A stretch of DNA of 64,000 bases from a virus: positions 62,001-126,000 of IMG/VR virus record IMGVR_UViG_3300027987_000382. One strand, given 5' to 3'. Every line of letters begins with the position of its first letter. The stretch's first letter is position 1. Below the pieces are notes generated by a model, which worked only from the letters and a program-made list of their open reading frames with translations, made no database searches and was not told where the DNA came from. This document shows, one piece after another, positions 13,579-62,752 of this stretch. Made by a program: the position numbers and the translations under genes.

Positions 13579-13656
13579 TTGCGTGTCATCTCCAGCTTCT
13601 GTTCCAGTATTGAACTGGCAGTCGTAGGAGAACCATCACGCCAAAGGAGAGCAGAG

Positions 13657-22115: not shown

Positions 22116-23179
22116 AGAAGTCCACGAAATCTGCTCGCGACCAAGCTGTATTCGTACACGGATAGGTACCTCTCATAGGTCATTTTGGCCAGTTCAGCAC
22201 GATATCCAGTATCGAAGAATTTGCTCATCTCGGCAGCATATTCACCTACCGAGTCCGTAACAGCACCGATCCCTCGCACCTGCTCCAAATGGCCAAGGTT
22301 AGTCCCATCGCCGTAATGGCTAACGATCGGTTTGCCATGGGCCATTGCTTCAATGAGGCTAGCAGAACAGACCTCACCGTCGCGACGACAATGTGCATAG
22401 ACGTCGATCGATTCAAGGAAGGCGTGAACCGTCTCTACACCGGAGACTGGCAGAAAGATGACGTTCTTGATTCCCTGACTTTGGACGAACTGACGATGTT
22501 GTTGATCGCCACCAAGGATGACATAATAAGTGTTATTGCGTACTATTTGAGAAAAGGCGTTCAAGGAGACGAGCGATGGAACCCCAGGTGCTTGGTGTAA
22601 TCCAAACACAAGAGCGTCGGCCGGAACACCAATTGATTCTCTGAAGCCCGTACCATCGACTCGTGGGATTGGAATTAGAGACGGGATTACCTCGAGCTTT
22701 GACGTATCACCACCATTCGCTTTCCATTGATTCGCTTGCCAATTGCACAAGAGCACCGACTTGCGAATGTTGGGGGCATTGTAGACATGCCACCCATGGA
22801 TCGTGTGAATAATCGGGACTCGCCCCAATTTGGTGTATGGAAATTCTGGCCTTCCGTCACCGGCTGTTACTAACCGATCGTACTTCGACTCATCGAACAG
22901 ATCAAAGAAATTGGTGTCAACCCAACCAGCTCCATCTGCCGCACTTCTGCGTCTACTTAACTGCACCAATTTGGTGTTGATCCCGGCGGATTCGACAAGC
23001 TCTTTCCTGGCAGGACATGTATCTGGATGTTGCCAGTTCGTTCCCTCGATTGGTGTCGCATTGGTGTAAAAGTAATCGACTTCGTGACCGGCTTCTTTGT
23101 ACAATAATGCAAGACTTTGGAGGTACTTTTCAGTGCCACCGGCCGCCAAACCACCGTACTTGCAAAAAGCGATTTTCAT
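22112..23179 (-). CDS. GT4-type glycosyltransferase
   Basis: 355 aa GT-B glycosyltransferase. The N-terminal G-G-L-A-A-G-G-T-E-K-Y-L is the acceptor-side glycine loop of GT4 enzymes. The C-terminal domain has Y-A-H-C-R-R-D-G-E-V-C-S-A-S-L-I-E-A-M-A-H-G, equivalent to the E-x7-E donor motif region. First gene of the six-gene minus operon; its start lies 20 bases from the divergent GT2-sulfotransferase gene. Donor sugar unknown; NDP-heptose is plausible from the operon context. Confidence 0.8.
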   Translation of the reverse strand: MKIAFCKYGGLAAGGTEKYLQSLALLYKEAGHEVDYFYTNATPIEGTNWQHPDTCPARKELVESAGINTKLVQLSRRRSAADGAGWVDTNFFDLFDESKYDRLVTAGDGRPEFPYTKLGRVPIIHTIHGWHVYNAPNIRKSVLLCNWQANQWKANGGDTSKLEVIPSLIPIPRVDGTGFRESIGVPADALVFGLHQAPGVPSLVSLNAFSQIVRNNTYYVILGGDQQHRQFVQSQGIKNVIFLPVSGVETVHAFLESIDVYAHCRRDGEVCSASLIEAMAHGKPIVSHYGDGTNLGHLEQVRGIGAVTDSVGEYAAEMSKFFDTGYRAELAKMTYERYLSVYEYSLVASRFRGLL

Positions 23180-23199
23180 ACGCTGGAAAACCTATCTTT

Positions 23200-24738
23200 A
23201 TGGAAACAACAAAAGTATCCGGTCTAACGATCGTCCGTAACGCCATTTCGAACGGCTACATGATCGCCGAAGTTATCGACACTTTGGCGGCAGTGGCAGA
23301 GCATCAGATAGTTGTATGTGACGGCCACTCTGACGACGGCACGTACGAGTATCTACAGACACGAAACGACATCGAATTATTCCAAGACCGGTGGGATCTC
23401 GAATCCGAAAACGGCCTGGAATTCGCCAAGATTACCAACCTTGGATTGAAACGATGCACCGGAGACTATATATTCTATCTTCAAGCCGACGAGCTGATCC
23501 ATGAAGACCAGATCGAACAGCTCAAAGAATTGATCCAATCTGGCAAGTATAACTCTATTTCTTGCAAATTCAACCATATCAGATACGATTTGGAATTTGC
23601 ATTGACAGAAGGCTACCAAAGAGCCGCCAGAGTGATCAAGAACAATGTCGGCATCAGCTCTGCTTACGACGGCTATGATTTCCAGGGCAGCGGTATGCAC
23701 CCACAGTGCATTTCAGGGGTCAACATCTACCACTACGGCTACGTCTTCCTCGAGAACATCATGAGGAAGATGATCAATCACTCCGACAATTTCTACAACA
23801 GAGCACCGAATTACGCGAACAGGAAACGCCTCGCCCAAGATTTCCTGAAGAGGATAGAGGCAGGTGAGGTTCTAAACGCTCTCGACCTACAGAAGACTCT
23901 GGAACCAGAGTACACGATACAAAAGCATGGTTTGCCGCTACCAGCCTGCATGGAAAGGTTACGGATCACAACAATCACCTACAGCACTGTTACCAAGTAT
24001 ACCTTACCACCGATTCCAGAGCCACCGGAGCCTAAAGAGCCAGAAGGTCCCGTGCGTACCATCGAGGATCTCGCCGTACATATCCCATTCTGGGATATCG
24101 CTGGTATCAAATTCACACGATCACACAGAGGCAACGCGTGGGTGAATCATAGGCTAAAAATAGCGTGCCTCGGGATACCAAAATGTGCTAGCACATCGTT
24201 GAGAAATCAGTTCAAAATGTCGGAACTGATGTTGGTTGAAGATATCCCAGACGATTATTTTCTATTCAGTGTGATAAGAAACCCGATCGGCAGAATTATC
24301 TCTGCATACATCGAGGTAGTCGAGAAGTGCCGGGCTTATCCAAATGGCAGATATAACACAGATCTTGAACTTTCTGAGGATCAAGTCTCGTTACTCGATG
24401 ATTTGATGGCTGACTACGACGATTGTGGCCGTTTCTCAGTCTATCTCAGCAAAATCCAAGATGAACTTGGTTTCTTCGAGCTTCACTGCGTTCCGCAGAT
24501 CATCTATCTCACGAACGAAAACAATCAGTTAATACCACGCATAGAGATCTTCAGGATCGATCGGCTCGAAGCCTTAGAGAAACGGCTCGGCACCAAAATC
24601 CAAAAAGAGAACCAGTCAGAGAACCCTGGTCTGAAGAATAAACTGGGGCACTTCGTGATGGCAAATTCCACTATCAGAAAACAGATCGCCCAGCTTTACA
24701 ACTACGACGCAAGAATCTGGGAAGAGTACGGCTTGTAA
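23200..24738 (+). CDS. GT2 glycosyltransferase - sulfotransferase fusion
   Basis: 512 aa from the ATG at 23200. Residues 1-~250 are a GT2-like domain (L-T-I-V-R-N-A, V-V-C-D-G-H-S-D-D-G, Y-L-Q-A-D-E with the metal-binding acidic pair near 97). Residues ~269-283 are a Pro/Glu-rich linker. Residues ~300-512 are a PAPS sulfotransferase-like domain: L-G-I-P-K-C-A-S-T-S-L is the 5'-phosphosulfate loop near 326 and F-S-V-I-R-N-P-I-G-R-I-I-S-A-Y is the 3'-phosphate motif. A bifunctional enzyme could add a sugar and sulfate it. PAPS would come from the host. Convergent with the GT10 gene; stops are one base apart. Confidence 0.85.
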   Translation: METTKVSGLTIVRNAISNGYMIAEVIDTLAAVAEHQIVVCDGHSDDGTYEYLQTRNDIELFQDRWDLESENGLEFAKITNLGLKRCTGDYIFYLQADELIHEDQIEQLKELIQSGKYNSISCKFNHIRYDLEFALTEGYQRAARVIKNNVGISSAYDGYDFQGSGMHPQCISGVNIYHYGYVFLENIMRKMINHSDNFYNRAPNYANRKRLAQDFLKRIEAGEVLNALDLQKTLEPEYTIQKHGLPLPACMERLRITTITYSTVTKYTLPPIPEPPEPKEPEGPVRTIEDLAVHIPFWDIAGIKFTRSHRGNAWVNHRLKIACLGIPKCASTSLRNQFKMSELMLVEDIPDDYFLFSVIRNPIGRIISAYIEVVEKCRAYPNGRYNTDLELSEDQVSLLDDLMADYDDCGRFSVYLSKIQDELGFFELHCVPQIIYLTNENNQLIPRIEIFRIDRLEALEKRLGTKIQKENQSENPGLKNKLGHFVMANSTIRKQIAQLYNYDARIWEEYGL

Positions 24739-25656
24739 TTACGCGTCAATTACGTTTAAGACTCGCTCTGGGGCGAACTCGTCCAAGACGGTCCTTTTCA
24801 GGGGTGGCTCACTGACCATTGACAAATATTCGCTATCGTTGGTCAGGATTTTCTTAACTCGCTTGATTACGGCTGGCCAATCATCTCGGCCGCCAACTGG
24901 AATGAAGTTCCGTTCGTTGAAGTATTCAAATATCTTGTCCGCTCCCCAATAGATTGGCACACATCTGGTGCAAACCCCATGAAGTGCCTTCTCTGTAAGG
25001 TATCCGGGATGCTTGCTGTTTTCAAAAGCGATGATTGATCGGTATCGATTGATGAAGTCGATCTTTTGTTTCTGATCCCCACGTCCACCAATTTCTGGGC
25101 AATTATTCAGAACCGGCCCAGCACAGTCTACTTTGAGGTGTTTCTGCATTTCTCTGCAGAATTGATTCCTCTCTGTTGCGGTTGGGTTCTTTGCTAAGAA
25201 GCAACAACCGTCCGTCTTTTGGCGAAGAAGAACATTACTATCTGTGATCGGCTCGAACAGGCTGTCCATACTCGCCAGGAACGCCATGTCGCGGTTGTGA
25301 TCGTACGGAACATTGAACCAGTTCATGAACAGCACGAATAGAGGCAGGTAGGTGTTCCTTCCCTCGGTCTTGTCGAATGTCAAAGTGACGTCGTAATCAA
25401 GCTTTATATCGGTCCAGTGCCCATTATGCACAGACCAAAGTCCTCTGTTTTCACCGCTGAAAAACACCTTCTTGCAGCGGTGCTTTTCGTACCGAAGCTT
25501 ATCCATGCTGTAGCACGACATGAAGACGATGTCAGGGTCTGACTCGTCGATGAGTACGTCGTACTTCTGCGAGAGGAGATGGAAGAAATAATTGTCTCGT
25601 TTTGGTAGGGCTGGCCAGAAATCAACGAAGTCGATTTTTATCGTTGGTGACTGCAT
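24739..25656 (-). CDS. GT10 fucosyltransferase-like protein
   Basis: 305 aa. I-I-A-F-E-N-S-K-H-P-G-Y-L-T-E-K-A-L and C-V-P-I-Y-W-G-A are the diagnostic alpha-1,3/4-fucosyltransferase block (F-E-N-S-x5-Y-x-T-E-K ... P-I-Y-W-G), and V-F-F-S-G-E-N-R matches the earlier conserved strand. Donor would be GDP-fucose; a GDP-fucose-synthase-like reductase is encoded at 42.9 kb. Located with a GT25-like gene in a two-gene minus operon (19-base overlap). Confidence 0.85.
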   Translation of the reverse strand: MQSPTIKIDFVDFWPALPKRDNYFFHLLSQKYDVLIDESDPDIVFMSCYSMDKLRYEKHRCKKVFFSGENRGLWSVHNGHWTDIKLDYDVTLTFDKTEGRNTYLPLFVLFMNWFNVPYDHNRDMAFLASMDSLFEPITDSNVLLRQKTDGCCFLAKNPTATERNQFCREMQKHLKVDCAGPVLNNCPEIGGRGDQKQKIDFINRYRSIIAFENSKHPGYLTEKALHGVCTRCVPIYWGADKIFEYFNERNFIPVGGRDDWPAVIKRVKKILTNDSEYLSMVSEPPLKRTVLDEFAPERVLNVIDA

Positions 25657-26798: not shown

Positions 26799-29700
26799 AT
26801 GGCCACTGGCACCGTAAAAGACCCGTTCGAAGACTACAAACGCCCCATTTGTGGCGAGTTCGTCGAGATCGGGCAACCAACATTCGCTGAACTTATCTGG
26901 GCTCGAGAAGTTCTAACACGAGCCACAAGCGGCCCCGACCCAGACGTCGCGACGGCCCTCAGGATTATTGCATATAGCAAAGGCCCTGTCGAACTGCCGG
27001 AAATGCGGAAGAAAAAATCCTTCCACGCAATTCCACCGCCAGTAGCATCAGAGGCTGCAGCCGCCAAATACGCAGTCAACGCCAGAAATAACGCCAAAGC
27101 ATACAAGCAGAAAGTCAAGGGCCTCGGCATCGCTAAGACGAGCGTTGAATTTCGCAAACTCGTCGCCAACGACCCAGAAATCCTCTCCGGTGATCCAGAA
27201 CTACTCAACCCATTAGGTCTGGAAGATTGCGTTATGCTTTCTGGTGGCGGGTTCGGTGGAATCACTCCCATCATCACGCCGACAGGATGCCCACCTAGCG
27301 AATGCGTCGTTGACGCTGTTTTCAGCATCGACAATAGCGGCAGTATGGGCCAATCCATTACTAATGTCAAGAACGGTGCGAATCAGATGGCATCTCTGAT
27401 TTCCACCGTTGCCAATGGCAGCTACCGATTCGCTCTAACAAGATTCGGTCAAGGACAAAACAACGGCAACCTTGACGTCCTGTTGGACATGACAAACCGC
27501 AATTGCGGTAATATTACTGAGTTCCAGACTGCCGTCAACACGATGAATGCCTCTGGTAGTACGGAACCGTGGCACCAGCAATTGCTTCAAGTTCAGGGTA
27601 ACGCAGGTCTTCGCTGGACATTCAGAGAAGAGTCGAACGCAAGGATCATCTTCACAATCACAGATGAGTCCGGCAATGTCACCACCGCTGACACATTGGC
27701 AGCCGCATCCAAACTAGGCAGTTGCAACATTCGTTGGGTTCTGATCTGGACCGGACTGATAAACCCTTACAACCAGACATTCCCAAATCGAACTGCTGAT
27801 GGATTCTCGAACGAAGGACAATTTTTCGACGCAATCGCAAAAAGGACTGGTGGCACCTGGGTGTGGGCTCCAAGAGGCACAGATATCGTGCCACTCATGA
27901 CGAGCTTCATCTTCAGCGTCTGTGCCTCAGCTGGTGAACTGGCCGAATGCCCAGGCGGTGTTGACAAAATCCTGAACGGAAGATTCGAAACGAGCATCGC
28001 CAACTGGAATAATCTTTCGACGCTTCCCCGTACGATCAGCTGGAACAGCGGGTTTCAATCACTCGAATTAAATGGGGCCGCTGGTCAAAAGGTCACTGGT
28101 CTTACTCCAGGTGACATCGCTATCATGAGTTTCGACGTCTGGGTCGAAACCACTCCGAGTGCTGCGAAAGCGGACGCCCCACTTGTTCCGCTTTCTGGTC
28201 CTGCGTGCCCAGCTGGGTATTCGCTACTAGACGAGGATGATTGGACTGGTGGCAACACCTCTCTCCAAGGTTGGGATGGCAGTGGGGCAATAGTCGAAAC
28301 AGGTGCTATGAAGTTCGCTACCATCAACGAAGGTGGCGGAACTGGCTCCTTGACAGACAAGTTGATCTTGACGGCCTCAGATAAGATCAAGACTTCGAAT
28401 CCAGATGGCACCGGTCTCACCGATTTGCTAACTGGATCTGGGAATGCACGCGATCTTGATGTTGACACCGTCCAAAAGCACATTTATTGGATGGAAATCA
28501 ACCAAGCGGGCGGCACCGAGAACGCCATTTATCGTGCGAATTTTGATGGCAGTGGTATAACAAAGATCAAGGACGTCGTGTATTCGCTCGGATTGTTTGT
28601 CGAGAGCACCACTCCATCCTACATCTACTACGGCGAAGCATCTGGGTCGTTCAGAATCAGAAGAATGGATCTCGATGGCACGAACGAAATAACTATCGCC
28701 ACCAGCCCACGCCGAGTAGTCAGATTACAAGTAGACAAAGACAACGGCTACATCTATTGGGTTGGATCGTCATCGGCCAGCAACGGCAGCGTCTATCGAT
28801 GCAATCTTGACGGAAGCAATCTGATTGTCATCATCGACGAAACATCTCAGCCAAAGATGGCGAATGCCAGAGGTATCGCCGTCGATAAGGCTAACGGCAA
28901 GATCTACGTCGCAACAGCCACCGACTTGTTATGGATGAATCTGGATGGTTCTGGATTTGCCGACATCGGAGACACAGGCGGTGCTGGCGATGATGTCTGG
29001 ATTGATCCAGTGGCAGGCCGTCTCTACGTTGCAGATGGTGGTACGGACACAGTTTTCAAGTATCGACTCGATGGCAGCAACCGACAACAACTATTCCCAA
29101 CCAGCACAGCCAATTTCAGTGGTGTAACCAGGCTCGCCGCCAATGCTGGATATGTCACCAAAACAAGCACCGGACTCACACCAGGAGATGATTTCAGATT
29201 TGCTGTTGATTTTCAAGCGATTGGTGGGTCCGGAACAGTTGCGATACAATTGTTTGACGGAGCGGTTCTGCTGGCTGAGAAAACCGGTATCACGATCGCC
29301 GCGATCGAGAACATCTCAGCAACTGTCCCAGCAAGCGGACAGATCACTGCAGTCATCAGAGCCATTCCGAATCCAACATTCAGCATGTCCATCAGAGTTT
29401 CTTCCACTTCATTCTGCGTCTCTGGTGCGGTCGGTGGCAGCGGTGGATTGCTGAAGTATAAGCTGCGGAACAATTCTGGCATAGTCTTAACCGAAGACTC
29501 TGTGACCGACTCTGATCTTCAACCTCCAGGCGTGGCTAACGCACAAAGATTCGACCTCTTTACCACAATTGGTATAGATGGGACAATCGAAGTCTTCTTC
29601 ACAGCGGAAGATGGCGACGACGTCGATTTTTATATCGACAACTGTCTGCTGTGCATTCTGAAAGAAGACGACTGCGGCCCAGGAACCAGAAACCTCGTCC

Positions 29701-39460: not shown

Positions 39461-39603
39461 ACTGGTTCTTTTCTCTTCTGGCCATCTACTATCACGATGG
39501 TCGGCTCCTCGATATCGTCAAGCGAGATCTCTTCTTCAACTTGAGATGACTTTGTCGAGTTGTCGTCTATTCCAGACACGGTGTTCGATCTTCCTCTGTT
39601 CAT
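39388..39603 (-). CDS. Possible small acidic protein, 71 aa
   Basis: Minus-strand frame rich in Asp, Glu and Ser (S-L-D-D-I-E-E-P-T-I-V-I-V-D-G). It overlaps the end of the sialidase-like gene by 68 bases on the same strand and the 143-aa gene by 73 bases on the other. Long overlaps make it uncertain; the true start may be later than 39603. The sequence looks protein-like, so I keep it with low confidence. Confidence 0.35.
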   Translation of the reverse strand: MNRGRSNTVSGIDDNSTKSSQVEEEISLDDIEEPTIVIVDGQKRKEPVYFECSDDFSAFDGDLVDKESSNS

Positions 39604-40561
39604 TCGAGAACGTCATGTGAAGATTGTCGTATTCGTCTACGCACATTGATGGGTATCCACCAACATCGCCGATCACACAGATCTTTTGGACACTCGGAAC
39701 TCTGTCCTTAAACGCGATCTCGCCTAATGTTAGGTTTCGGCGGCTGATCTTGTCGGTGTCATTCCATAATAACAGATCACGGCCCGCCCATTGGATAGCG
39801 TGCAATGAACTATTTCTGTTCGGGATTTTAGTCGGTCGTGGTGAAGACCAGCTTTCTCCGAAATCATCAGAGTAGCAATATCGGCACGCAGTTTCGTTGG
39901 TACCGAAATTTCTGCTGAGCGAGTGGACCCGGTTATCTGTCTTCCACAAGGTCGGCTGAATCATGTCCTGCCCAATCGATCCAACACGCATCGTGTGCAT
40001 CGTCTGGTCCAGCACTCTTGTGGTCGATTTGTCAACGATCCTGATCTTATAGATGACGCCGGATCGTGCTAACTCATCATATAAAGGCAGTAAATAATCG
40101 GTTCTGCATCCGATTGTCCCGTAGTGAATGGGGTTACAACGCCCAAGGAGGTGCTGGTCAGGGAATGCTAATTGCCTTGGTTCGGCGACAAATTCGATTC
40201 CGTTATTGAGGACCACCTCCTGTATCCAAAGACTACAGAACCTCCAGCGGTCAACGATGCGGCGTACATCGCCGGTGTCTTCGAACTTGGACCAGATAAG
40301 ATAGGCTTGTGTGCCGTGCGACCAAATCACAGGATTGCCAGTTTTGTCGCCGATTCTCACGGCTTCGGAGTATGTGCCATCGTCCTTGCTGAATGTGACG
40401 TACACGCTTTGATCGTCGCGGCATTCACCTGTTCCGGAATACCAGGCCAAAAGCACCCCTCCACGAAACGGACAAACAGAAGAGCAGTGATTGAACCTCC
40501 CGGCCCCAACTTCGTGTCGGCGGCTAGTCGCGAAGATACTACGGATGATTCTTCGGAGCAT
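39536..40561 (-). CDS. Sialidase/BNR-repeat-like protein
   Basis: 341 aa. C-Y-S-D-D-F-G-E-S-W-S-S is an Asp-box (S-x-D-x-G-x-T/S-W). Earlier V-Y-V-T-F-S-K-D-D-G resembles a second, degenerate one. R-N-F-G-T-N-E-T and N-R-N-S-S-L-H-A-I suit the six-bladed propeller of GH33-type or related exosialidases and BNR glycoside hydrolases. No signal peptide. It could cut terminal sialic-acid-like sugars on the host surface, or be a virion glycan-binding propeller. Arg-triad assignment needs a structure. Confidence 0.65.
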   Translation of the reverse strand: MLRRIIRSIFATSRRHEVGAGRFNHCSSVCPFRGGVLLAWYSGTGECRDDQSVYVTFSKDDGTYSEAVRIGDKTGNPVIWSHGTQAYLIWSKFEDTGDVRRIVDRWRFCSLWIQEVVLNNGIEFVAEPRQLAFPDQHLLGRCNPIHYGTIGCRTDYLLPLYDELARSGVIYKIRIVDKSTTRVLDQTMHTMRVGSIGQDMIQPTLWKTDNRVHSLSRNFGTNETACRYCYSDDFGESWSSPRPTKIPNRNSSLHAIQWAGRDLLLWNDTDKISRRNLTLGEIAFKDRVPSVQKICVIGDVGGYPSMCVDEYDNLHMTFSNEQRKIEHRVWNRRQLDKVISS

Positions 40562-42878: not shown

Positions 42879-44261
<1,383 letters not shown>

Positions 44262-49770: not shown

Positions 49771-49942
49771 GATCATCCCATTCGACACAGAATGCATCCT
49801 CTGCGGAAAGCCGTTCATAGAGGCTGAGTCAACTCGTATCGACAAATGCCCAGAATGCGTGGCTATCCAAGAAGCAGCAATCAAAAAAGACGTAGACGAA
49901 TGGCTTGCGAGGCAACAGAATGCTTCTTCCGGTTCTAACTGA
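49733..49942 (+). CDS. Small zinc-ribbon protein, 69 aa
   Basis: Best start is a GTG at 49733 after GGGAG, overlapping the GT4 gene; other starts are possible (GTG 49679). C-I-L-C-G-K-P-F ... C-P-E-C is a zinc ribbon, then a helical, charged tail. Overlaps the radical-SAM gene by 23 bases. Unknown role. Confidence 0.5.
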   Translation: MAQSGENSKSSPEIIPFDTECILCGKPFIEAESTRIDKCPECVAIQEAAIKKDVDEWLARQQNASSGSN

Positions 49943-50999
49943 CAAAATGCATTGTTGGGCTTGGAACCGCATATACGTCAAATCCAACGGCCGAGTCCCC
50001 TGCTGGTGTGACGCCGGAGAGATCAAAACAATCTGGCAAAAAGACTTTGGCGAATCAGACTTCGTCAAAGACCTCGTCAACGGCCCAGAGCTGCGAGAAA
50101 TGCGGCTCAAAGTCCTCCGCGACCAGCAATACTACATCGAAGAATGTGGCAGATGTTGCTGCATGATCGAAAAGGGCAAAGGCAGCCACTGGCGGTACCC
50201 TGACGGCGATCGCGACATCGACGTCGGCAAAATGAACGAAACCGCCCTCGGCATCTTGCGACGCGTCGCCAAAGTCAGAAAATGGCCCTACGGCAGCATC
50301 GACAAAATCGCCGAAATCCAGCTCGAGCCATCATTCCCATGCAATCTTCGCTGCCCAGGTTGTCTTCATGGCTGGCACAGCGACCCAATGAGCACAGAAG
50401 AGCGGCCATATTTCTTCCCGCTTGATTGGTTCACCAAAATGATCAAATCGATCGTCGTGAACCGCGTCACCCTAAAGCGGATCGCATTCGTAGGACGCGG
50501 AGAACCGACGCTCAATAAGCAATTCCCGGTCATGATCGATCACGCCAGGAGTCGTATCCCAGAAGTCCTCATGTCCATGGACACCAACAGTAATCAACCA
50601 TGGAGAGACGAGTACATCTGCCTCAATTGGATAAACTGCTCTATTGATGGGTCGACACCAGAAGCGTATTCGACCTATCGTCTGCGTGGTCGTTTCGCAC
50701 CAGCAATCCGATTTATGGAGAACGCTGTAGCCGCAAGAGATGCAGCCGGTGATACAACCAACTGCAAGATTCGCTGGAAATACATTCTATTTGACACAAC
50801 CGAATCAGATGAGCTGCTGAATCGGGCTCAACAGATGGCGAAGGATATCGGCATCGACGAGCTTGACTTCGTGATCACTACTGTCGGAGCATTCGACAAG
50901 ACGGTGAATCCAGCCACCAGATTCAAAACCATGGAACAGTTCAACGAATATCTGACAGGAAATCCGATATTCACAGGATCAATGGTGTCACGATCATGA
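49920..50999 (+). CDS. Radical SAM protein with N-terminal SPASM-like domain
   Basis: 359 aa from the ATG at 49920. C-N-L-R-C-P-G-C (C141, C145, C148) is the CxxxCxxC cluster for the SAM-binding 4Fe-4S. F-V-G-R-G-E-P-T is the GE motif. The first ~85 residues have W-N-R-I-Y-V-K-S-N-G-R-V-P-C-W-C and, ~45 residues later, C-G-R-C-C-C, the Cys layout and flanks of a SPASM domain, which is normally C-terminal. So the order seems permuted. SPASM domains hold extra Fe-S clusters in peptide- or sugar-modifying enzymes. Substrate unknown. A methyltransferase follows with a 4-base overlap. Confidence 0.8.
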   Translation: MLLPVLTDKMHCWAWNRIYVKSNGRVPCWCDAGEIKTIWQKDFGESDFVKDLVNGPELREMRLKVLRDQQYYIEECGRCCCMIEKGKGSHWRYPDGDRDIDVGKMNETALGILRRVAKVRKWPYGSIDKIAEIQLEPSFPCNLRCPGCLHGWHSDPMSTEERPYFFPLDWFTKMIKSIVVNRVTLKRIAFVGRGEPTLNKQFPVMIDHARSRIPEVLMSMDTNSNQPWRDEYICLNWINCSIDGSTPEAYSTYRLRGRFAPAIRFMENAVAARDAAGDTTNCKIRWKYILFDTTESDELLNRAQQMAKDIGIDELDFVITTVGAFDKTVNPATRFKTMEQFNEYLTGNPIFTGSMVSRS

Positions 51000-52269: not shown

Positions 52270-52732
52270 TTGTACCTCCAAGTTCAGCAGATTCCAGCTC
52301 CCAATGATGCGGAAGGTCTATCCATCGTTGATCGCCAGCAGCATTGTTAGCGTTCAACCGATGAGTCAGCCCGCAAGCCTCATCTTCTACCTCAAGCACA
52401 GATACAAGGGAGCTTTCATACTGAAATCTGGCTTCTACGTGCTGGTCGGCACATGGATTCACAACGACAAAGAATTATTGCTCCTACGAGAATTCAGTGG
52501 AGATCCAGACGAAGAATGCGTTTATGTCGATGTTGCTGAGAACATGACCGAGCCAGGACAAGACCAATCCAAGCAACAATACCAGCTCAGAGTTGAGTTC
52601 GAAAACGGCGATATCAAGGAAGGCAACCAAGAGTTCATCGACACAAACGTAGACATCAAATTCCACAAAGATGGGATCTGCCACGATTTCAAGTTCATTC
52701 GCAAAGAGATGGCAGCCGTATGCCTGACCTAA
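52262..52732 (+). CDS. Small protein with gp23-like capsid motif
   Basis: 156 aa. Residues ~17-50 contain V-Y-P-S-L-I-A-S-S-I-V-S-V-Q-P-M and S-L-I-F-Y-L-K-H-R-Y. They closely resemble the conserved R/T-Y-P-N-L-I-A-x-x-I-V-x-V-Q-P-M-x-x-P-x-G-L-I-F stretch at the start of T4-like major capsid proteins. The rest (about 100 aa) is acidic and does not look like a capsid fold. It may be a capsid fragment, vertex or accessory, or a decoy that interacts with assembly proteins. Overlaps the previous stop and the radical-SAM gene. Confidence 0.55.
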   Translation: MSNCTSKFSRFQLPMMRKVYPSLIASSIVSVQPMSQPASLIFYLKHRYKGAFILKSGFYVLVGTWIHNDKELLLLREFSGDPDEECVYVDVAENMTEPGQDQSKQQYQLRVEFENGDIKEGNQEFIDTNVDIKFHKDGICHDFKFIRKEMAAVCLT

Positions 52733-53493
52733 CCAAGCCAGGACGACTTTTCGAAGCACAGGTGGAGTTCACAACGAACTGTAATCTCCGCTGCATCTAC
52801 TGTGCCGTGAGTCAGCCATGGTATCAAGGCAAGGCACCTGAAGGCGGCCGAACTGAAGACAGGCGAAAGGACCTTGTCGTCAATGTTGACGAGCTTATTG
52901 AGATCTTCAAAAGACGGCAGACCAAGATCGTCAACATTCACGGGCATGGTGAGACCACCATGCTTGATGGTTGGCACCACACAGCCCAAAAGTTCATTGA
53001 CGCCGGATTTGACGTTATTGTCTGTACCAATCTGATCAAGAGATATTCTGAGGAAGAGTTGCGAGTCCTCAGTAAGCTAAACAGCATCACAGTCAGCATC
53101 GATGCTGTTGATCAGAGTACTTTCAAACAGCTGAGGGGAGGCGATGTCCGCCAGCTGGTCTACAATATGGTCCGGATTAGGGCCATCGCTGAAGAAAGGA
53201 GTTTTTATCAGCGGTGGGTTTGGTCGATCGTCGTTGTCGATCGTTCTTTACCGGGGCTTTTGGACGTCGTCAAGACCGGCCTCGCCCTTGGAGTAGAATC
53301 ATTCTGCTTCTGCGATTTCTACAAGGAGGCGATAGTATCCCCGGTGGTTGGCATAGGGGATATGGGGGAGGATGCCAGGGCTGAGGCAGATAGAATTATG
53401 CGTGAGGTCCAGGACTACTGCTTGACCAACGGTGCCGTTTTTATGACGTCTCTTGATGGACAGGAGCGATTCAGCAAGAGGGGTTATCTATGA
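52720..53493 (+). CDS. Radical SAM protein (core only)
   Basis: 257 aa. C-N-L-R-C-I-Y-C (C21, C25, C28) binds the 4Fe-4S, and I-H-G-H-G-E-T-T is the GE motif. I-T-V-S-I-D-A-V-D is a later barrel strand. It lacks the C-terminal SPASM extension expected of this type; the next gene encodes exactly that domain with a 4-base overlap. Likely an iron-sulfur peptide- or sugar-modifying enzyme; substrate unknown. Confidence 0.8.
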   Translation: MPDLTKPGRLFEAQVEFTTNCNLRCIYCAVSQPWYQGKAPEGGRTEDRRKDLVVNVDELIEIFKRRQTKIVNIHGHGETTMLDGWHHTAQKFIDAGFDVIVCTNLIKRYSEEELRVLSKLNSITVSIDAVDQSTFKQLRGGDVRQLVYNMVRIRAIAEERSFYQRWVWSIVVVDRSLPGLLDVVKTGLALGVESFCFCDFYKEAIVSPVVGIGDMGEDARAEADRIMREVQDYCLTNGAVFMTSLDGQERFSKRGYL

Positions 53494-53783
53494 GTGAGCA
53501 GACGAGATTGTGCCTCGATCCGTGGGCGAAGGTATTGATTAAAAGCAACAGATCGGTGTGTATTTGTTGTTATTCGCCGCCCGTTGGGCATCTCGACAAG
53601 TCCACTCTGGATGAGATATTGGATGGTGCCGAAGCTACCGCATATCGTGCCAAATTACTGTCTGGGGAAATGATGCCTGCTTGCAGGATCTGCCCTGATA
53701 AGAATATGGTTCCGATCGAGAGGCTCAAGGAGGCTGTCACCAACTATGTCGAATCTGGGGAGAAGCCATACGGGATTGGATGA
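53490..53783 (+). CDS. Stand-alone SPASM-like domain protein
   Basis: 97 aa. C-L-D-P-W-A-K-V-L-I-K-S-N, C-I-C-C-Y-S, G-H-L-D-K-S-T-L-D-E-I-L and C-R-I-C-P-D-K reproduce a SPASM domain (Cys at 8, 24, 26, 27, 65, 68). SPASM domains bind auxiliary Fe-S clusters. ATGA overlap with the radical SAM gene suggests one enzyme split over two chains. Confidence 0.75.
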   Translation: MSEQTRLCLDPWAKVLIKSNRSVCICCYSPPVGHLDKSTLDEILDGAEATAYRAKLLSGEMMPACRICPDKNMVPIERLKEAVTNYVESGEKPYGIG

Positions 53784-56217: not shown

Positions 56218-56242
56218 GGACATTGTGATGAAGGAGCAACAA

Positions 56243-56875
56243 ATGACAGAGTGGTTGCAATTGAAGCGTCTAGAGCGTAACAATCTTCCACTACCCAAGT
56301 ACGAAACAGAGCACTCAGCAGGCATCGATTTCAGCGTCTGCCTAACACGAACTTGCAAAGAATGCTTGCCCGGCGGATCGAAGCGAAAATTCCTCGCAGT
56401 CGATAAAGGTGGACACGGATTCGGCCGCCACCACTTTGGCGAAGAAAATGTTCCAGACATCATCCAGTGCCCCAACGGTCCAGACAAACTTGCGGTCGTC
56501 ATACAACCGCGAGAAACCTTGATGCTACCGCTAGGCTGGATCGCAGAGTTTGGAGCCAACTTCGTCCTCAAAATCCACGTCAGATCCTCGGCAGGGCTCA
56601 ACGGACTGATGCTGGCAAACGGCACTGGCATCGTCGACCCAGACTATCGCGGCGAGTTATTCGCCTGCCTCTGGAATCGGACAGACGGCCCAATCCAGAT
56701 CAAACACGGACAACGCGTAGTCCAAGGAGTCATGCTCGCCTTCAATCAGGCGATTGTCACAGAAGCCAAAGAAGTGTCGGAAACAGGTCGCGGAGACGGC
56801 GGATTCGGCTCAACCGGCGATCAACTCACAATTCCGGCACCGGCAGCGGATCCTCCGCCGCAATCAGGCAGTTGA
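56243..56875 (+). CDS. dut: dUTPase
   Basis: 210 aa from the ATG at 56243 (AAGGAG at 56231-56236); an ATG at 56228 also exists. Five trimeric-dUTPase motifs: H-S-A-G-I-D-F-S; R-S-S-A-G-L-N; G-I-V-D-P-D-Y-R-G-E-L; G-Q-R-V-V-Q-G; G-R-G-D-G-G-F-G-S-T-G. An extra Cys/His-containing insertion (C-K-E-C-L, G-H-G-F-G-R-H-H) lies between motifs 1 and 2, making it longer than usual. Converts dUTP to dUMP. Its last 50 bases overlap the minus-strand sulfatase end. Confidence 0.9.
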   Translation: MTEWLQLKRLERNNLPLPKYETEHSAGIDFSVCLTRTCKECLPGGSKRKFLAVDKGGHGFGRHHFGEENVPDIIQCPNGPDKLAVVIQPRETLMLPLGWIAEFGANFVLKIHVRSSAGLNGLMLANGTGIVDPDYRGELFACLWNRTDGPIQIKHGQRVVQGVMLAFNQAIVTEAKEVSETGRGDGGFGSTGDQLTIPAPAADPPPQSGS

Positions 56876-58055
56876 CCAAATTCTGACGCATCTTCGCGAT
56901 CACACGAGGCATCGAGTCCGCACGGTTCACTGTCTCACCCGGATCAGATTCGAGATCGAATAGGAACTCATCATCGCCGCATATCCAATATTTAAAGCGG
57001 CTATTCCTCACCATCTTCAATCTCGGTTTGTAACCGACCATGCTCAAGGCACACCGAGTAAAATCAATATGCGTCAAACTCTTCCCTTGAATACCAGGGC
57101 CGATTTCTTGTTCCAGCATCTCAAGTATCGTCGGCACAACATCAATATGCTCATGCAACCCATAACATCGCCTTGGCCCCCAGCCCGGAATGCGAACAAT
57201 CAACGGCACCGACACTACTTGTTCGTAAGCATATAAACCCTTTGAGAAGCACCCATGGTCGCCGAGCATGTCACCATGATCAGAAGTGAAAACAACGATT
57301 GTGTCTCGAGCTTTCCTATCCACAAAGTCCATGATACGGCCGACATTGTCATCTATCCATGAGACACAGCCGTAATATTGGCTTTTGATCATTCGCCAAT
57401 CTTCCGGCGTCAGCTTCGTTCCCTCGTATGTCTCAATCCCATCAGGAGCAGAAAAAGAATCAGGATCATACATGCCACAGAACGGCGGAGGAGAAGCATA
57501 CGGAGGATGAGGACCTCTGAACCCAATCGCACATAAGAATGGTCGCTTGCAATTACTCATGAATCTGACGGCACGCTCCGAAATCACATCCTCATGCTGA
57601 TAAAGGCGACTGCTCAACTTAGCCGCCCAAGACGTCGTCTTCATGATCTCCAGATACTCACGACGGGCAACGCCAGCATCACGGCCCGGCAAATCCTTTC
57701 CTTCTCTCCAATCCTCGGACAAATACGAATTTTGCGGATCGAATCCAAAATGGCCTAGAGTGTGGGTCGTTCTGTCCAGATGCCATTTCCCGAAATAGGC
57801 AGTCTCGTACTGGACATCACGGAGCATGTTGGCAAGCGTCTGTTCCGTCTTCGCCAACTCCATCTCATTCCACCACATCCGCAAAGTGCTCGGATAGCGG
57901 CCGGTCCAGAAGGCCGCTCTTGCCGGTTGGCATTGCGGGCTTTGAGCGTAACAGTCGAACGAGAGTGACTGTTCTGCGAGTTTGTTGATGTTCGGGGTGC
58001 ATGCACCGATCGTATCAGTTCGTTGCTGATCGGTCATGATGATCAAGACATTCAT
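56826..58055 (-). CDS. Arylsulfatase-type sulfatase
   Basis: 409 aa. C42-Q-P-A-R46 is the C-x-P-x-R formylglycine motif needed for activation; G-R-Y-P follows. Metal-site residues are seen in M-T-D-Q-Q-R (start) and S-D-H-G-D-M-L-G-D-H. H-E-H-I-D-V-V-P-T and the C-terminal L-F-D-L-E-S-D-P-G-E fit the S1 sulfatase family. Needs a host formylglycine-generating or anSME enzyme. No signal peptide, unlike typical secreted sulfatases, so it may act in the cell, on the virion, or after lysis. Last gene of a five-gene minus operon. Confidence 0.9.
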   Translation of the reverse strand: MNVLIIMTDQQRTDTIGACTPNINKLAEQSLSFDCYAQSPQCQPARAAFWTGRYPSTLRMWWNEMELAKTEQTLANMLRDVQYETAYFGKWHLDRTTHTLGHFGFDPQNSYLSEDWREGKDLPGRDAGVARREYLEIMKTTSWAAKLSSRLYQHEDVISERAVRFMSNCKRPFLCAIGFRGPHPPYASPPPFCGMYDPDSFSAPDGIETYEGTKLTPEDWRMIKSQYYGCVSWIDDNVGRIMDFVDRKARDTIVVFTSDHGDMLGDHGCFSKGLYAYEQVVSVPLIVRIPGWGPRRCYGLHEHIDVVPTILEMLEQEIGPGIQGKSLTHIDFTRCALSMVGYKPRLKMVRNSRFKYWICGDDEFLFDLESDPGETVNRADSMPRVIAKMRQNLVNCLIAAEDPLPVPEL

Positions 58056-58405
58056 GCTACTTCTACTTCCATAAACAACACTTCGAAAATATGTATGTCG
58101 CCGTCAGGTGCGATGATCACTTTGGGATTCTTCAAAAGACGCTTGACCGCTTTGATGGAGCACTCTGCTTCCTCGCGAGTCCATCCATCTGACATCATAT
58201 CTTCTGGAGTGCTGAGTTTGTCGGCTCGCCTGCCGCCAAACATGACGATCTCGCCATCCTTGTCATATTCCCACGTCTTTGGGACGTTGGCACAAGTGAA
58301 ACAGATCTCTGGGTAAGTGCGACCGTCTATGAACGGTTCCTCGGAGAAGCATCGTACAATGACTTCGATTGGAGTCTTGCAGATGGGGCAGAGGTAGTCA
58401 TCCAT
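58052..58405 (-). CDS. Zinc-ribbon hypothetical protein, 117 aa
   Basis: ATG at 58405 (M-D-D-Y-L-C-P-I-C-K). Cysteine pairs C-P-I-C and C-F-T-C make a zinc site. The C-terminal half has a helical E-E-A-E-C-S-I-K-A-V-K-R-L-L-K. Overlaps both neighbours (4 and 8 bases). Unknown. Confidence 0.6.
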   Translation of the reverse strand: MDDYLCPICKTPIEVIVRCFSEEPFIDGRTYPEICFTCANVPKTWEYDKDGEIVMFGGRRADKLSTPEDMMSDGWTREEAECSIKAVKRLLKNPKVIIAPDGDIHIFEVLFMEVEVA

Positions 58406-58724
58406 TATCAAACAGGCCCTCGTGGCGATGAGCCCTCCTACCGCACAGATCGCAAATGTGCTCTGAATCGTTGTTTCCAGAAGCGTCTGGATAATACGTC
58501 GTTTCGAGATGCGGACACTGCTTCTGTAAATCCACTCTTCTTGCATTTATCTCGCCGACAGCTTTCTTATGACGCTCCTCTTCATCCTGCTCGTCGCGAG
58601 TGATGGACCGCAATTCTTGGTGGAGTGTCTTGTCTGTTTCGATGGCGTTAGCGATGTAATCACCCAGTTCGCTTTGCTCACCCTTGAACTCGTCAACCAG
58701 CTTTTTGATTGTTTCTGATTTCAT
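58398..58724 (-). CDS. Helical protein with C-terminal Cys/His motif, 108 aa
   Basis: ATG at 58724 (M-K-S-E-T-I-K-K). Glu/Lys-rich helices, then C-P-H-L-E ... C-D-L-C-G-R-R-A-H-R-H, a probable zinc site. Overlaps neighbours on both sides. Unknown. Confidence 0.55.
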   Translation of the reverse strand: MKSETIKKLVDEFKGEQSELGDYIANAIETDKTLHQELRSITRDEQDEEERHKKAVGEINARRVDLQKQCPHLETTYYPDASGNNDSEHICDLCGRRAHRHEGLFDNG

Positions 58725-58953
58725 CGTGACGTCCTTCCCGGAGCTTCTTGACCCAATCCTCAAGGTCAGATGCTGGATCTGTAAAGCACAACGCGTATTC
58801 GGTTCCAGCAGCGATGCCGTAGACCACGTCATCTTCGACCACAAACATGAGGCGATGCCACTTACCGTCAGGTCCTGGAAAGGACGATCGCACAACGTCA
58901 CCTTCAATCCTGAAAGCTGGGTCCAGGACAGCGGCGATCAAATCAACAATCAT
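58693..58953 (-). CDS. Hypothetical protein, 86 aa
   Basis: ATG at 58953 overlaps the upstream gene by 11 bases. M-F-V-V-E-D-D-V-V-Y-G-I-A strand region and D-L-E-D-W-V-K-K-L-R-E-G helix. Unrecognised. Part of the sulfatase operon. Confidence 0.5.
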   Translation of the reverse strand: MIVDLIAAVLDPAFRIEGDVVRSSFPGPDGKWHRLMFVVEDDVVYGIAAGTEYALCFTDPASDLEDWVKKLREGRHDEIRNNQKAG

Positions 58954-59269
58954 CGAGCGATTCTGTGAGGGCAAGATCAAGGTCGCGGAATAACGGTTCG
59001 AAGTCTGCATTTGGATCACACATATCGTACGACTTCAAGACGTCGCGGTAGACTCTTTCAGTCGGCGGTTTGGTTGTGTCGCCTTTCTTGTGATATCGAA
59101 CTATTTTCAGATCACCGTCGAAGACAATCTGATATTGTTGAAGATCAAGAGTTATTTCAATACAGTGCTCATCGTAAATCTTCGTTGTGTAAACTATCGC
59201 CTTCGGCCAGCGTGCTTTCAGCTGTTCCGCCAACGCCATGTAGAACGTCTTAAGCCAGTCTCCGCTCAT
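58943..59269 (-). CDS. Hypothetical protein, 108 aa
   Basis: First gene of the five-gene minus operon; its ATG at 59269 is 114 bases from the divergent radical-SAM ATG. Alpha/beta composition with Y-H-K-K-G-D-T-T-K and acidic C-terminal helix. Unrecognised. Confidence 0.5.
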   Translation of the reverse strand: MSGDWLKTFYMALAEQLKARWPKAIVYTTKIYDEHCIEITLDLQQYQIVFDGDLKIVRYHKKGDTTKPPTERVYRDVLKSYDMCDPNADFEPLFRDLDLALTESLDDC

Positions 59270-61008: not shown

Positions 61009-61375
61009 ATTCCTGACAGCTTGGTTCCAGAGCAAGCAAGAGCCGCGAAAACTCTTGTGGCATGAAGTCAAGAGACGAACTACACAGAACGGTGTTCAAC
61101 TCACACCACAAGAGTTCGCGATCATCGGACAATGCCTTTGTCCAGATTGCGGCAGCAAACTGCTGAAAGGACCAGAAGGAGGTGGCTCAGTCAACGTCTA
61201 CTGTGCAAACGACAAAGACTGTGGAAGCCGCTACAACCTGATGGGCTGGATCGGAGCAGAACGGATTAATGACAGCCGAGGATCAATGACCCTCGTCGAG
61301 ACATTTAAGCCTCATCGTACTCCGGCAACCGCTCGGTCGGATGCAGCGAGATCTTGTCACGCTTCGCACCAGTGA
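60989..61375 (+). CDS. Zinc-ribbon hypothetical protein, 128 aa
   Basis: Basic N-terminus (R-R-I-L-K-F-L-T-A-W-F) may be an amphipathic helix. C-P-D-C-G-S-K-L and C-A-N-D-K-D-C-G form a zinc ribbon as in several small phage proteins. The Ala/Arg-rich C-terminal tail overlaps the convergent gene by 71 bases. Confidence 0.55.
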   Translation: MLRRILKFLTAWFQSKQEPRKLLWHEVKRRTTQNGVQLTPQEFAIIGQCLCPDCGSKLLKGPEGGGSVNVYCANDKDCGSRYNLMGWIGAERINDSRGSMTLVETFKPHRTPATARSDAARSCHASHQ

Positions 61376-61712
61376 GCAGCTCCTGAATACCGTCAAGAAT
61401 CTCAGCGAGATTCACGATCTTCAGCTCCTCGTTCTTCCACAGAAGACGAGCATTCTCCAGATCAACGATCACACGGAGATTCTTCCGGCCAGCCCCCTTG
61501 CCCGACTTCTCCCACGAATCCGTGGTGAAGTCACGGACCTTGAGCTTCGCCGTGATCTCGATATCAGCCCTCGGGTCTGACAGAGGATGGCCGTTCTTCG
61601 AGCGGACTTCGACGGTGCACATTTCGGCATGAGGCCGCATACACCGGATGGTTCCCAGATTCACTCTGGTTTCCTTCTCGAATTCCTCGTTGATAGTTCG
61701 CTTGATCGCCAT
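61305..61712 (-). CDS. Hypothetical protein, 135 aa
   Basis: Basic, alpha/beta protein, M-A-I-K-R-T-I-N-E-E-F. G-K-G-A-G-R-K-N-L-R-V-I-V-D. Converges on the zinc-ribbon gene with a 71-base overlap. Not recognised. Its upstream region contains the hairpin at 61792-61818. Confidence 0.55.
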   Translation of the reverse strand: MAIKRTINEEFEKETRVNLGTIRCMRPHAEMCTVEVRSKNGHPLSDPRADIEITAKLKVRDFTTDSWEKSGKGAGRKNLRVIVDLENARLLWKNEELKIVNLAEILDGIQELLTGAKRDKISLHPTERLPEYDEA

Positions 61713-61829: not shown

Positions 61830-62228
61830 ATGCCAAGAAAGAATGAGTACAGCCTAAGAGCCGCCGTCATACTATTTTCGCTGATTCCGCACACCGGCAA
61901 AGAAAAGTTGCAGGTCTGGCAAGCAGGGAACAGGTGGACTACCAAAGACGGTAAAGTCAAACAAGCTCGAAAACGCTTCAAAACAGAGGGCATCGCAACG
62001 CACGAAGCTCACCTCAATGGCAAGAACATAACGGAAGCAGGAACTTCGATCGAATCACCGAACGCCAACACCGCCATCATTGTCGCCAGACACGGTGACT
62101 GGAGGCTAATACATAACGAAGAAGAATACAAGATTCTCACCTGGCGTGATCTCGAAGGCGGCGGGACACACCCGGTAGCCAGAAAACACAAAGGCCGCAT
62201 GGTCTACCTACTACGGAAAATCCAATGA
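61830..62228 (+). CDS. Hypothetical basic protein, 132 aa
   Basis: ATG at 61830. Lys/Arg-rich (K-V-K-Q-A-R-K-R-F-K) with H-G-D-W-R and V-A-R-K-H-K-G-R; likely nucleic-acid binding from charge alone. Four-base overlap with the sulfotransferase-like gene. Confidence 0.5.
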   Translation: MPRKNEYSLRAAVILFSLIPHTGKEKLQVWQAGNRWTTKDGKVKQARKRFKTEGIATHEAHLNGKNITEAGTSIESPNANTAIIVARHGDWRLIHNEEEYKILTWRDLEGGGTHPVARKHKGRMVYLLRKIQ

Positions 62229-62752
62229 TCTACTGCCCCGGCCGATTCATCTTCATCCACATCCCAAGAACAGCAGGCATCTCAATCACACGAGGACTCG
62301 CCTCAACCGACGTCTGTGATCTCGCCCTCATCAACACCTGCAACACCCCCGCCGAATTCTGGCGACACGTAACCGCAACAGAAGTCAAACCACTCATTCC
62401 GGATTGGGGCGAAATCAAGAAATTCGCCTTCTACAGATCGGATCACGACATCTACGAATCCGACTACCGCCTCCACAAAAGCTGTATCAAAGACATAGAC
62501 TCCTGGCCAGACGTCTCAATGCTCTCCGACTGGAAGAAAAGCGTGCTCCAGTCCAATGATGAGTCATTCCAACAGTTCATCCAAAGACATTGGGTGCCCT
62601 GGCTCGGTCAAGACCGCACCGTCTGGGAACACTGGACGACACACGAATTCGAACGATTCAAGTTCGACGATCTCATAAACGAATGGAATCGTCTCCTCGA
62701 ATGGCTCGAAATTACCTATGTTCCACTACAGCACTTGAACAGAACGAAATGA
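62225..62752 (+). CDS. Sulfotransferase-like protein (degenerate)
   Basis: 175 aa. F-I-F-I-H-I-P-R-T-A-G-I-S-I-T is the 5'-phosphosulfate loop of family-2 sulfotransferases (I-H-I-P-K/R-T-A-G-T-S). The expected R-N-P-x-x-R-x-x-S motif appears only as F-Y-R-S-D-H-D-I-Y-E-S-D-Y. Shorter than typical (250+ aa). Activity is doubtful; it could be a compact variant. The second sulfotransferase-like gene here besides the GT2 fusion. Confidence 0.65.
   Translation: MIYCPGRFIFIHIPRTAGISITRGLASTDVCDLALINTCNTPAEFWRHVTATEVKPLIPDWGEIKKFAFYRSDHDIYESDYRLHKSCIKDIDSWPDVSMLSDWKKSVLQSNDESFQQFIQRHWVPWLGQDRTVWEHWTTHEFERFKFDDLINEWNRLLEWLEITYVPLQHLNRTK

What the first reader, a model, noticed from the sequence alone, without database searches (positions are those of the whole stretch)
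56826..58055. Phage-encoded sulfatase in a genome that also has sulfotransferases
A full C-x-P-x-R sulfatase sits at the end of a five-gene operon, and sulfotransferase domains occur at 24 and 62 kb. The phage may both add and remove sulfate. It could strip sulfate from host polysaccharide to reach the surface or to reuse nutrients, as host planctomycetes do. Lack of a signal peptide means release by lysis or virion attachment.
Basis: partly seen in the sequence, partly recalled or inferred. Interest (0 to 1): 0.7.

Follow-up and report, generated by a model that had tools for sequence, protein, structure and literature searches.

The report
Jumbo-phage sulfatase clade beside sulfotransferases
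The window holds a complete, apparently active sulfate-removing enzyme from a separate branch found only in one group of uncultured giant phages, which also carry sulfate-adding enzymes; the molecule it acts on is unknown.

Summary
Window 56826-58055 (-) encodes a 409-aa formylglycine-type (S1) sulfatase (PF00884 E 3e-40; AlphaFold pLDDT 92; best solved match the iota-carrageenan sulfatase PsS1_NC, Z 41). All 11 active-site residues are kept; there is no signal peptide.

New here: five other large phage contigs carry 41-46% identical copies. The six form one clade (100/100) on a long stem; the best cellular matches found are about 33%. These phages are one uncultured contractile-tailed jumbo-phage lineage, and the gene lies beside or near dUTPase in five. 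The nearest relative (408 kb) keeps the neighbours but lacks the sulfatase. All six carriers also have a sulfotransferase match.

Corrections: the 24-kb sulfotransferase domain holds; the 62-kb one is unproven. A planctomycete host is unsupported. Lack of a signal peptide does not imply lysis release or virion attachment. No maturase was found, so host maturation is inferred. It is not a choline sulfatase.

Most likely it is a host-matured glycan O-sulfatase working with the phage's glycosyl- and sulfotransferases. Substrate and site of action are inferred.

The parts
56826..58055 (-). Sulfatase gene, 409 aa, S1 (formylglycine-type) fold, no signal peptide
57930..57932 (-). Codon of Cys42, predicted formylglycine nucleophile, first residue of C-x-P-x-R
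   Evidence: invariant in 37 aligned sulfatases
57918..57920 (-). Codon of Arg46 of C-x-P-x-R
58026..58031 (-). Codons of Asp9 (metal ligand) and Gln10 (partner of the acid Lys)
57276..57281 (-). Codons of Asp259 and His260 (metal ligands, TSDHGD motif)
57780..57788 (-). Codons Lys90-Trp-His92 (GKWH motif, sulfate binding)
57507..57509 (-). Codon of His183 (general-acid pair with Lys272)
57240..57242 (-). Codon of Lys272 (general-acid pair)
58052..58405 (-). Small gene just upstream, its stop overlapping the sulfatase start (start set at Met48 of the longest ORF); homologues precede the sulfatase in G002 (47%) and G003 (36%)
58398..59269 (-). Three further overlapping small ORFs of the same minus-strand run, function unknown
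56225..56875 (+). dUTPase, convergent neighbour that overlaps the sulfatase 3' end by 50 bases; marks the conserved locus
   Evidence: PF00692 E 9e-15; synteny
24229..24714 (+). Sulfotransferase domain at the C-terminus of a GT2 glycosyltransferase fusion (ORF 23017-24738)
   Evidence: PF03567 E 5e-8
62225..62752 (+).
   Evidence: no family match

Best explanation
The gene encodes an active class-I sulfatase. Cys42 is oxidised to formylglycine by the host's maturation enzyme; FGly42, a divalent metal held by D9, D259 and H260, the residues K90, N63 and H92, and the H183-K272 acid pair then cleave a sulfate ester. It is an old, mainly vertically inherited gene of one jumbo-phage lineage. The most likely role is to remove O-sulfate from a carbohydrate (a host glycan, its cytosolic precursor, or a phage-made glycan) during infection, as the eraser opposite the phage's own sulfotransferases and glycosyltransferases, so that infected cells or virions carry altered surface glycans. 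Shown: gene, fold prediction, complete active site, phage clade, conserved locus, sulfotransferases in the same records. Inferred: host-dependent maturation, carbohydrate substrate, cytosolic site of action, glycan-remodelling role.
For: Family and fold. All 11 active-site residues of choline and aryl sulfatases matched (one search read against PMC5870055) and kept in six phage copies. Phage clade 100/100, best cellular identity about 33%. Conserved locus and lineage. Closest solved relatives are polysaccharide sulfatases (PsS1_NC E 3e-67 by profile; Z 41.4). Sulfotransferase matches in all six carriers and a sulfotransferase-type gene in 9 of 10 lineage records. Many glycosyltransferases and GDP-sugar genes in the record. 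No leader peptide in any copy.
Against: Substrate is untested; S1 specificity cannot be read safely from 26% identity. No direct link between this enzyme and the sulfotransferases. No FGE or anaerobic maturase found in the phage, so activity depends on an unknown host. G009 lives without it. No APS kinase, so sulfation also leans on the host. No expression data.
Confidence: 0.5

Rival explanations
1. Extracellular role: the enzyme is set free at lysis or rides on the virion and strips sulfate from a sulfated capsule or slime, easing adsorption or spread.
For: Nearest solved enzymes act on sulfated polysaccharides. A leaderless protein could leave at lysis.
Against: No leader, no fusion to a tail or spike domain, and the locus lies among nucleotide-metabolism genes beside dUTPase, not beside structural genes.
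Confidence: 0.2
2. Nutrient or osmolyte scavenging: the enzyme cleaves a small cytosolic sulfate ester of the host to free sulfate or the alcohol.
For: Leaderless, like cytosolic choline sulfatase; TIGR03417 is the top NCBIfam match at 171.7 bits.
Against: Far below the choline-sulfatase cut-off of 433.45 bits. The choline-recognising Glu386 (PMC5870055) aligns with Met339, not conserved as Glu in any phage copy, and the C-terminal tail 449-512 that shapes that pocket is absent. Other small esters remain possible.
Confidence: 0.17
3. It is a phosphodiesterase or phosphonate monoester hydrolase of the same superfamily, not a sulfatase; for example a counter-defence enzyme that destroys a nucleotide signal.
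For: PMH structures are close (Z 39-40) and the superfamily is promiscuous; Gln10 and Lys272 are shared with PMH.
Against: The phage protein matches all 11 residues of the sulfatases, while RlPMH matches only 9 of 11 (PMC5870055); sequence profiles and the top structures are sulfatases.
Confidence: 0.08
4. Artefact or passenger: bacterial DNA in the contig, or a recently captured host gene without a phage role.
For: Several sulfatase hits in public phage records are of this kind: the Campylobacter phage A11a hit lies among bacterial chromosome genes, and the Klebsiella hit at the end of a prophage record. G009 lacks the gene.
Against: Phage-only clade of six, conserved locus, third-position GC that follows each phage genome, and lineage genes on both sides.
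Confidence: 0.05

Closest known systems
PsS1_NC exo-2S-iota-carrageenan sulfatase (PDB 6pt4, 6ptk, 6pt6)
   Same: Same fold over nearly the full length (Z 41.4, 379 residues, rmsd 2.3-2.4 A); best profile match, aligned to the C-terminus (E 3e-67)
   Different: 26% identity; a bacterial enzyme whose chain begins with about 24-37 extra residues; specificity cannot be transferred
Sinorhizobium meliloti choline sulfatase BetC (PDB 6fny, 6g5z)
   Same: All 11 catalytic residues including Gln10 and Asn63 equivalents; leaderless
   Different: Glu386 replaced by Met339, C-terminal tail 449-512 missing, far under the TIGR03417 cut-off
Sulfatases of giant viruses of eukaryotes (Satyrvirus, Terrestrivirus, Tetraselmis virus 1, Yasminevirus)
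   Same: Virus-encoded sulfatase fold
   Different: 15-18% identity, viruses of eukaryotes; no full-length phage match among the confident BFVD hits
PHROG 19870
   Same: All six copies match it, best E 2e-57
   Different: Listed as unknown function; its members and their phages could not be inspected
Phage-borne FGE genes of Pseudoalteromonas phages (PMC10232697)
   Same: Phage gene touching the sulfatase pathway
   Different: There the phage carries the maturase; here it carries the sulfatase and no maturase was found

Membership tests
S1 formylglycine-dependent sulfatases (SulfAtlas) | PF00884 domain and alkaline-phosphatase-superfamily sulfatase fold | tested here: met
S1 formylglycine-dependent sulfatases (SulfAtlas) | [CS]-x-P-x-R maturation core | tested here: met
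   C42-Q-P-A-R46; invariant C and R in 37 sequences
[quoted passage not shown]
   Gln41 and Gln43 fall outside the pattern in all six phage copies; the pattern is empirical and is not claimed to recover every sulfatase, so it is not a strict definition
S1 formylglycine-dependent sulfatases (SulfAtlas) | Metal ligands and catalytic Lys/His set | tested here: met
   D9, Q10, N63, K90, H92, H183, D259, H260, K272
S1 formylglycine-dependent sulfatases (SulfAtlas) | Formylglycine present and sulfate-ester hydrolysis | not testable with these tools
   needs protein and assays
Choline sulfatase (BetC) | Score over the TIGR03417 cut-off | tested here: not met
   171.7 against 433.45 bits
Choline sulfatase (BetC) | Glu386 and C-terminal tail forming the choline pocket | tested here: not met
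   Met339 at that place and chain ends at 409
Phosphonate monoester hydrolase | Active-site set of RlPMH, which differs from sulfatases at 2 of 11 places | tested here: inconclusive
   The phage protein has the full sulfatase set; the two PMH residues were not compared directly
Phage core or near-core gene of a jumbo lineage | Found at the same locus in contigs picked by an independent core gene | tested here: met
   Helicase-based sampling: of six contigs reaching the region, five carry it, four of these near dUTPase; small sample
Sulfotransferase (62-kb ORF) | Family-level match to a sulfotransferase model | tested here: inconclusive
   No match; short motif only

The most novel reading that the evidence does not exclude
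A jumbo-phage lineage carries its own writer and eraser of sulfation: conserved sulfotransferases and a phage-specific S1 sulfatase subfamily that re-pattern sulfate on host or virion glycans from inside the cell, for instance to block superinfection or to mask virions, with the eraser switched on by the host's formylglycine enzyme.
Probability: 0.3. Interest if true: 0.75.

Novelty: new variant of a known kind. Interest (0 to 1): 0.52.

Why it matters
Phage sulfatases are barely mentioned in the searchable literature, and several public examples are contaminants. A catalytically intact sulfatase that has descended with a jumbo-phage lineage implies that sulfate-ester chemistry matters during infection. 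It gives a defined clade to express and assay, and a possible case of a phage enzyme that depends on the host's formylglycine machinery.

Tried and rejected
Phage-encoded maturase: radical-SAM proteins at 49905-50999 and 52720-53493 and the separate SPASM ORF 53490-53783 looked like candidates, but none scores as the anaerobic sulfatase maturase. The FGE-type match in G003 sits inside a 1693-aa frame, as in diversified C-type-lectin proteins of phages (title and abstract of PMC6328139), so it was not counted as an FGE. Choline sulfatase: rejected on cut-off, Glu386 and tail. INPHARED hits as phage precedents: rejected for A11a (bacterial chromosome neighbours); the unverified fecal records were not followed. 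dN/dS was not attempted, since the copies are 41-49% identical and synonymous sites should be saturated. The single-protein viral scan found nothing; an alignment query was needed. ThyX as a lineage marker was too widespread and was dropped. Literature searches for phage, viral or jumbo-phage sulfatases gave no dedicated study; the library lacks most subscription papers.

Full report
What is there. The window is bases 62001-126000 of a 146,839-base IMG/VR virus record, G000. ORF 56826-58055 (-) encodes 409 aa and matches Pfam Sulfatase over residues 2-314 at E 3e-40. It is the only sulfatase in the record. The AlphaFold2 model, built from 37 aligned sequences, has mean pLDDT 92.1 and pTM 0.93. 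Foldseek and VIA-align both put PsS1_NC, an exo-2S-iota-carrageenan sulfatase, first (Z 41.4, rmsd 2.3-2.4 A, 379 residues, 26% identity), with other glycan sulfatases, dimeric aryl sulfatases, phosphonate monoester hydrolases and choline sulfatase close behind. A profile of the six phage copies also ranks PsS1_NC first (E 3e-67), above choline sulfatase (E 2e-54).

Is it intact? In the phmmer alignment with Sinorhizobium choline sulfatase, the residues that PMC5870055 names as its active site are all matched: D9, Q10, C42, R46, N63, K90, H92, H183, D259, H260, K272. All eleven are invariant in the six phage copies. The choline-specific Glu386 aligns with Met339 and the tail 449-512 is missing, so this is not a choline sulfatase; TIGR03417 also fails its cut-off (171.7 against 433.45 bits). 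The motif is PQCQP[SA]R: the core [CS]-x-P-x-R is present, but Gln41 and Gln43 lie outside the extended pattern of PMC5066984. The protein starts at its first strand, and no copy shows a hydrophobic leader (highest 15-residue mean hydropathy 0.16-0.90).

A phage clade. Scans of IMG/VR with alignments found five other large contigs (137-228 kb) with 41-46% identical sulfatases. A scan of 84,980 bacterial and archaeal genomes gave at best about 33%. That scan was seeded with motifs of the phage clade, which should favour close relatives, but it is not exhaustive. In a maximum-likelihood tree of 58 sequences the six phage proteins form one group with 100/100 support on a stem of 1.0 changes per column. 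Three other viral-contig sulfatases (L016-L018) fall elsewhere, next to bacterial ones.

One phage lineage. Between 66 and 91 of the 161 called genes of this record are found in each of the five contigs, many at 40-70% identity and in the same order. A 408-kb relative, G009, shares 103 genes and has terminase, portal, tail sheath, baseplate and ribonucleotide reductase, so the lineage is a contractile-tailed jumbo phage. No isolated phage is close (replication-protein hits near 30%). The sulfatase lies next to dUTPase in G000, G001, G002 and G008 and two genes away in G003; G007 has it elsewhere. In G009 the dUTPase and homologues of the ORFs that follow in G000 (58943-59269 and 61305-61712) are kept and the sulfatase is absent; a loss is the simplest reading. 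Of the contigs found through the replicative helicase, independently of the sulfatase, six reach across this region and five carry the gene; the other long ones examined (G010-G012) end before it. The sample is small. Third-position GC of the gene follows each phage (0.56 in G000, 0.66 in G001, 0.26-0.37 in the AT-richer ones), though always somewhat under the genome mean.

Sulfate adders. The 24-kb domain is real (PF03567); the 62-kb ORF is unproven. More telling are two genes outside the window: L002:7813-8472, a family with conserved FLHIPK and VRHP-WYQSRW motifs, present in 9 of 10 records and recognised as PF03567 in 3 of 6 members, and L002:17331-18104 (PF13469 just over its cut-off). 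All six sulfatase carriers show a PF03567 match at E <= 0.01, four of them over the cut-off; G009, without the sulfatase, shows none, although it has a homologue of the first gene. No APS kinase was found, so PAPS would come from the host.

Maturation. No free-standing FGE was found in G000 or its relatives and no anaerobic maturase passed its cut-off. The records are fragments, and the longest genome, G009, lacks the sulfatase, so a phage maturase is not excluded. Dependence on a host enzyme is the simplest reading and is inferred.

How it probably works. Shown: predicted sulfatase fold, complete active site, phage ancestry, sulfotransferases in the same phages. Inferred: formylglycine made by the host, a carbohydrate sulfate as substrate, and action inside the infected cell alongside the phage's glycosyl- and sulfotransferases.

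Novelty. Formylglycine sulfatases are well known, and PHROG 19870 already holds phage relatives of unknown function. What appears new is a deep phage-only branch, kept at one locus of a jumbo-phage lineage, that may deserve its own S1 subfamily. The searched literature holds only passing mentions of viral sulfatases (PMC10029852) and of phage FGE (PMC10232697).

Noticed in passing
window 13579-14826 (+): PurZ/PurA-like 2-aminoadenylosuccinate synthetase (PHROG 1211, E 2e-58), kept in every lineage record; G009 has a second one (L269:18326-19741). Possible diaminopurine (Z) DNA in a jumbo-phage lineage.
   Followed up: partly
L179:4944-8582 and L177:3246-7064 (G001): PurZ and the DNA polymerase III PHP protein of G001 lie in ORFs of 1212 and 1272 aa with only partial alignment to the 415- and 474-aa G000 proteins; large in-frame insertions, perhaps inteins.
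   Followed up: no
window 52720-53493 and 53490-53783 (+): A radical-SAM ORF and a SPASM-domain ORF sit side by side as two genes; they look like one split rSAM/SPASM protein, target unknown.
   Followed up: partly
G000 record genes at 2684-3235, 27772-28806, 57428-57856, 129415-129849: Several otherwise different proteins share a short EYEGLEDADEF-like peptide near the N-terminus, an odd repeated acidic tag.
   Followed up: no
L004:13858-15528 (-): Volactin (viral actin-like) domain PF25216 E 3e-37, kept in nearly all lineage records.
   Followed up: no
L004:2583-5519 and L004:8115-9539 (-): DNA polymerase III alpha appears split in two genes, a PHP/N-terminal part and the rest, several kb apart.
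   Followed up: no
window 24739-25656 (-), 42900-43898 (+), 39536-40561 (-): Fucosyltransferase (GT10), GDP-sugar epimerase-type enzyme and a BNR (sialidase-like) protein: a rich glycan toolkit.
   Followed up: partly
L008 (MG065691.1 77124-90437): The 'Campylobacter phage A11a' record carries what reads as an enterobacterial chromosome segment (acetolactate synthase, drug exporter and sugar transport genes): contamination in a public phage record.
   Followed up: partly
L012 (MK416010.1 1-3031): Klebsiella prophage record begins with a sulfatase maturase next to a sulfatase-superfamily 'phosphatase', probably host genes at the prophage edge.
   Followed up: no
L002:90-2245 (-): Cluster of 12 tRNA genes at the start of the record; G009 has about 23 tRNA calls, two of them typed as selenocysteine tRNAs.
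   Followed up: no
G000 record 129850-133000: About 3 kb without an ORF called by the simple gene caller.
   Followed up: no
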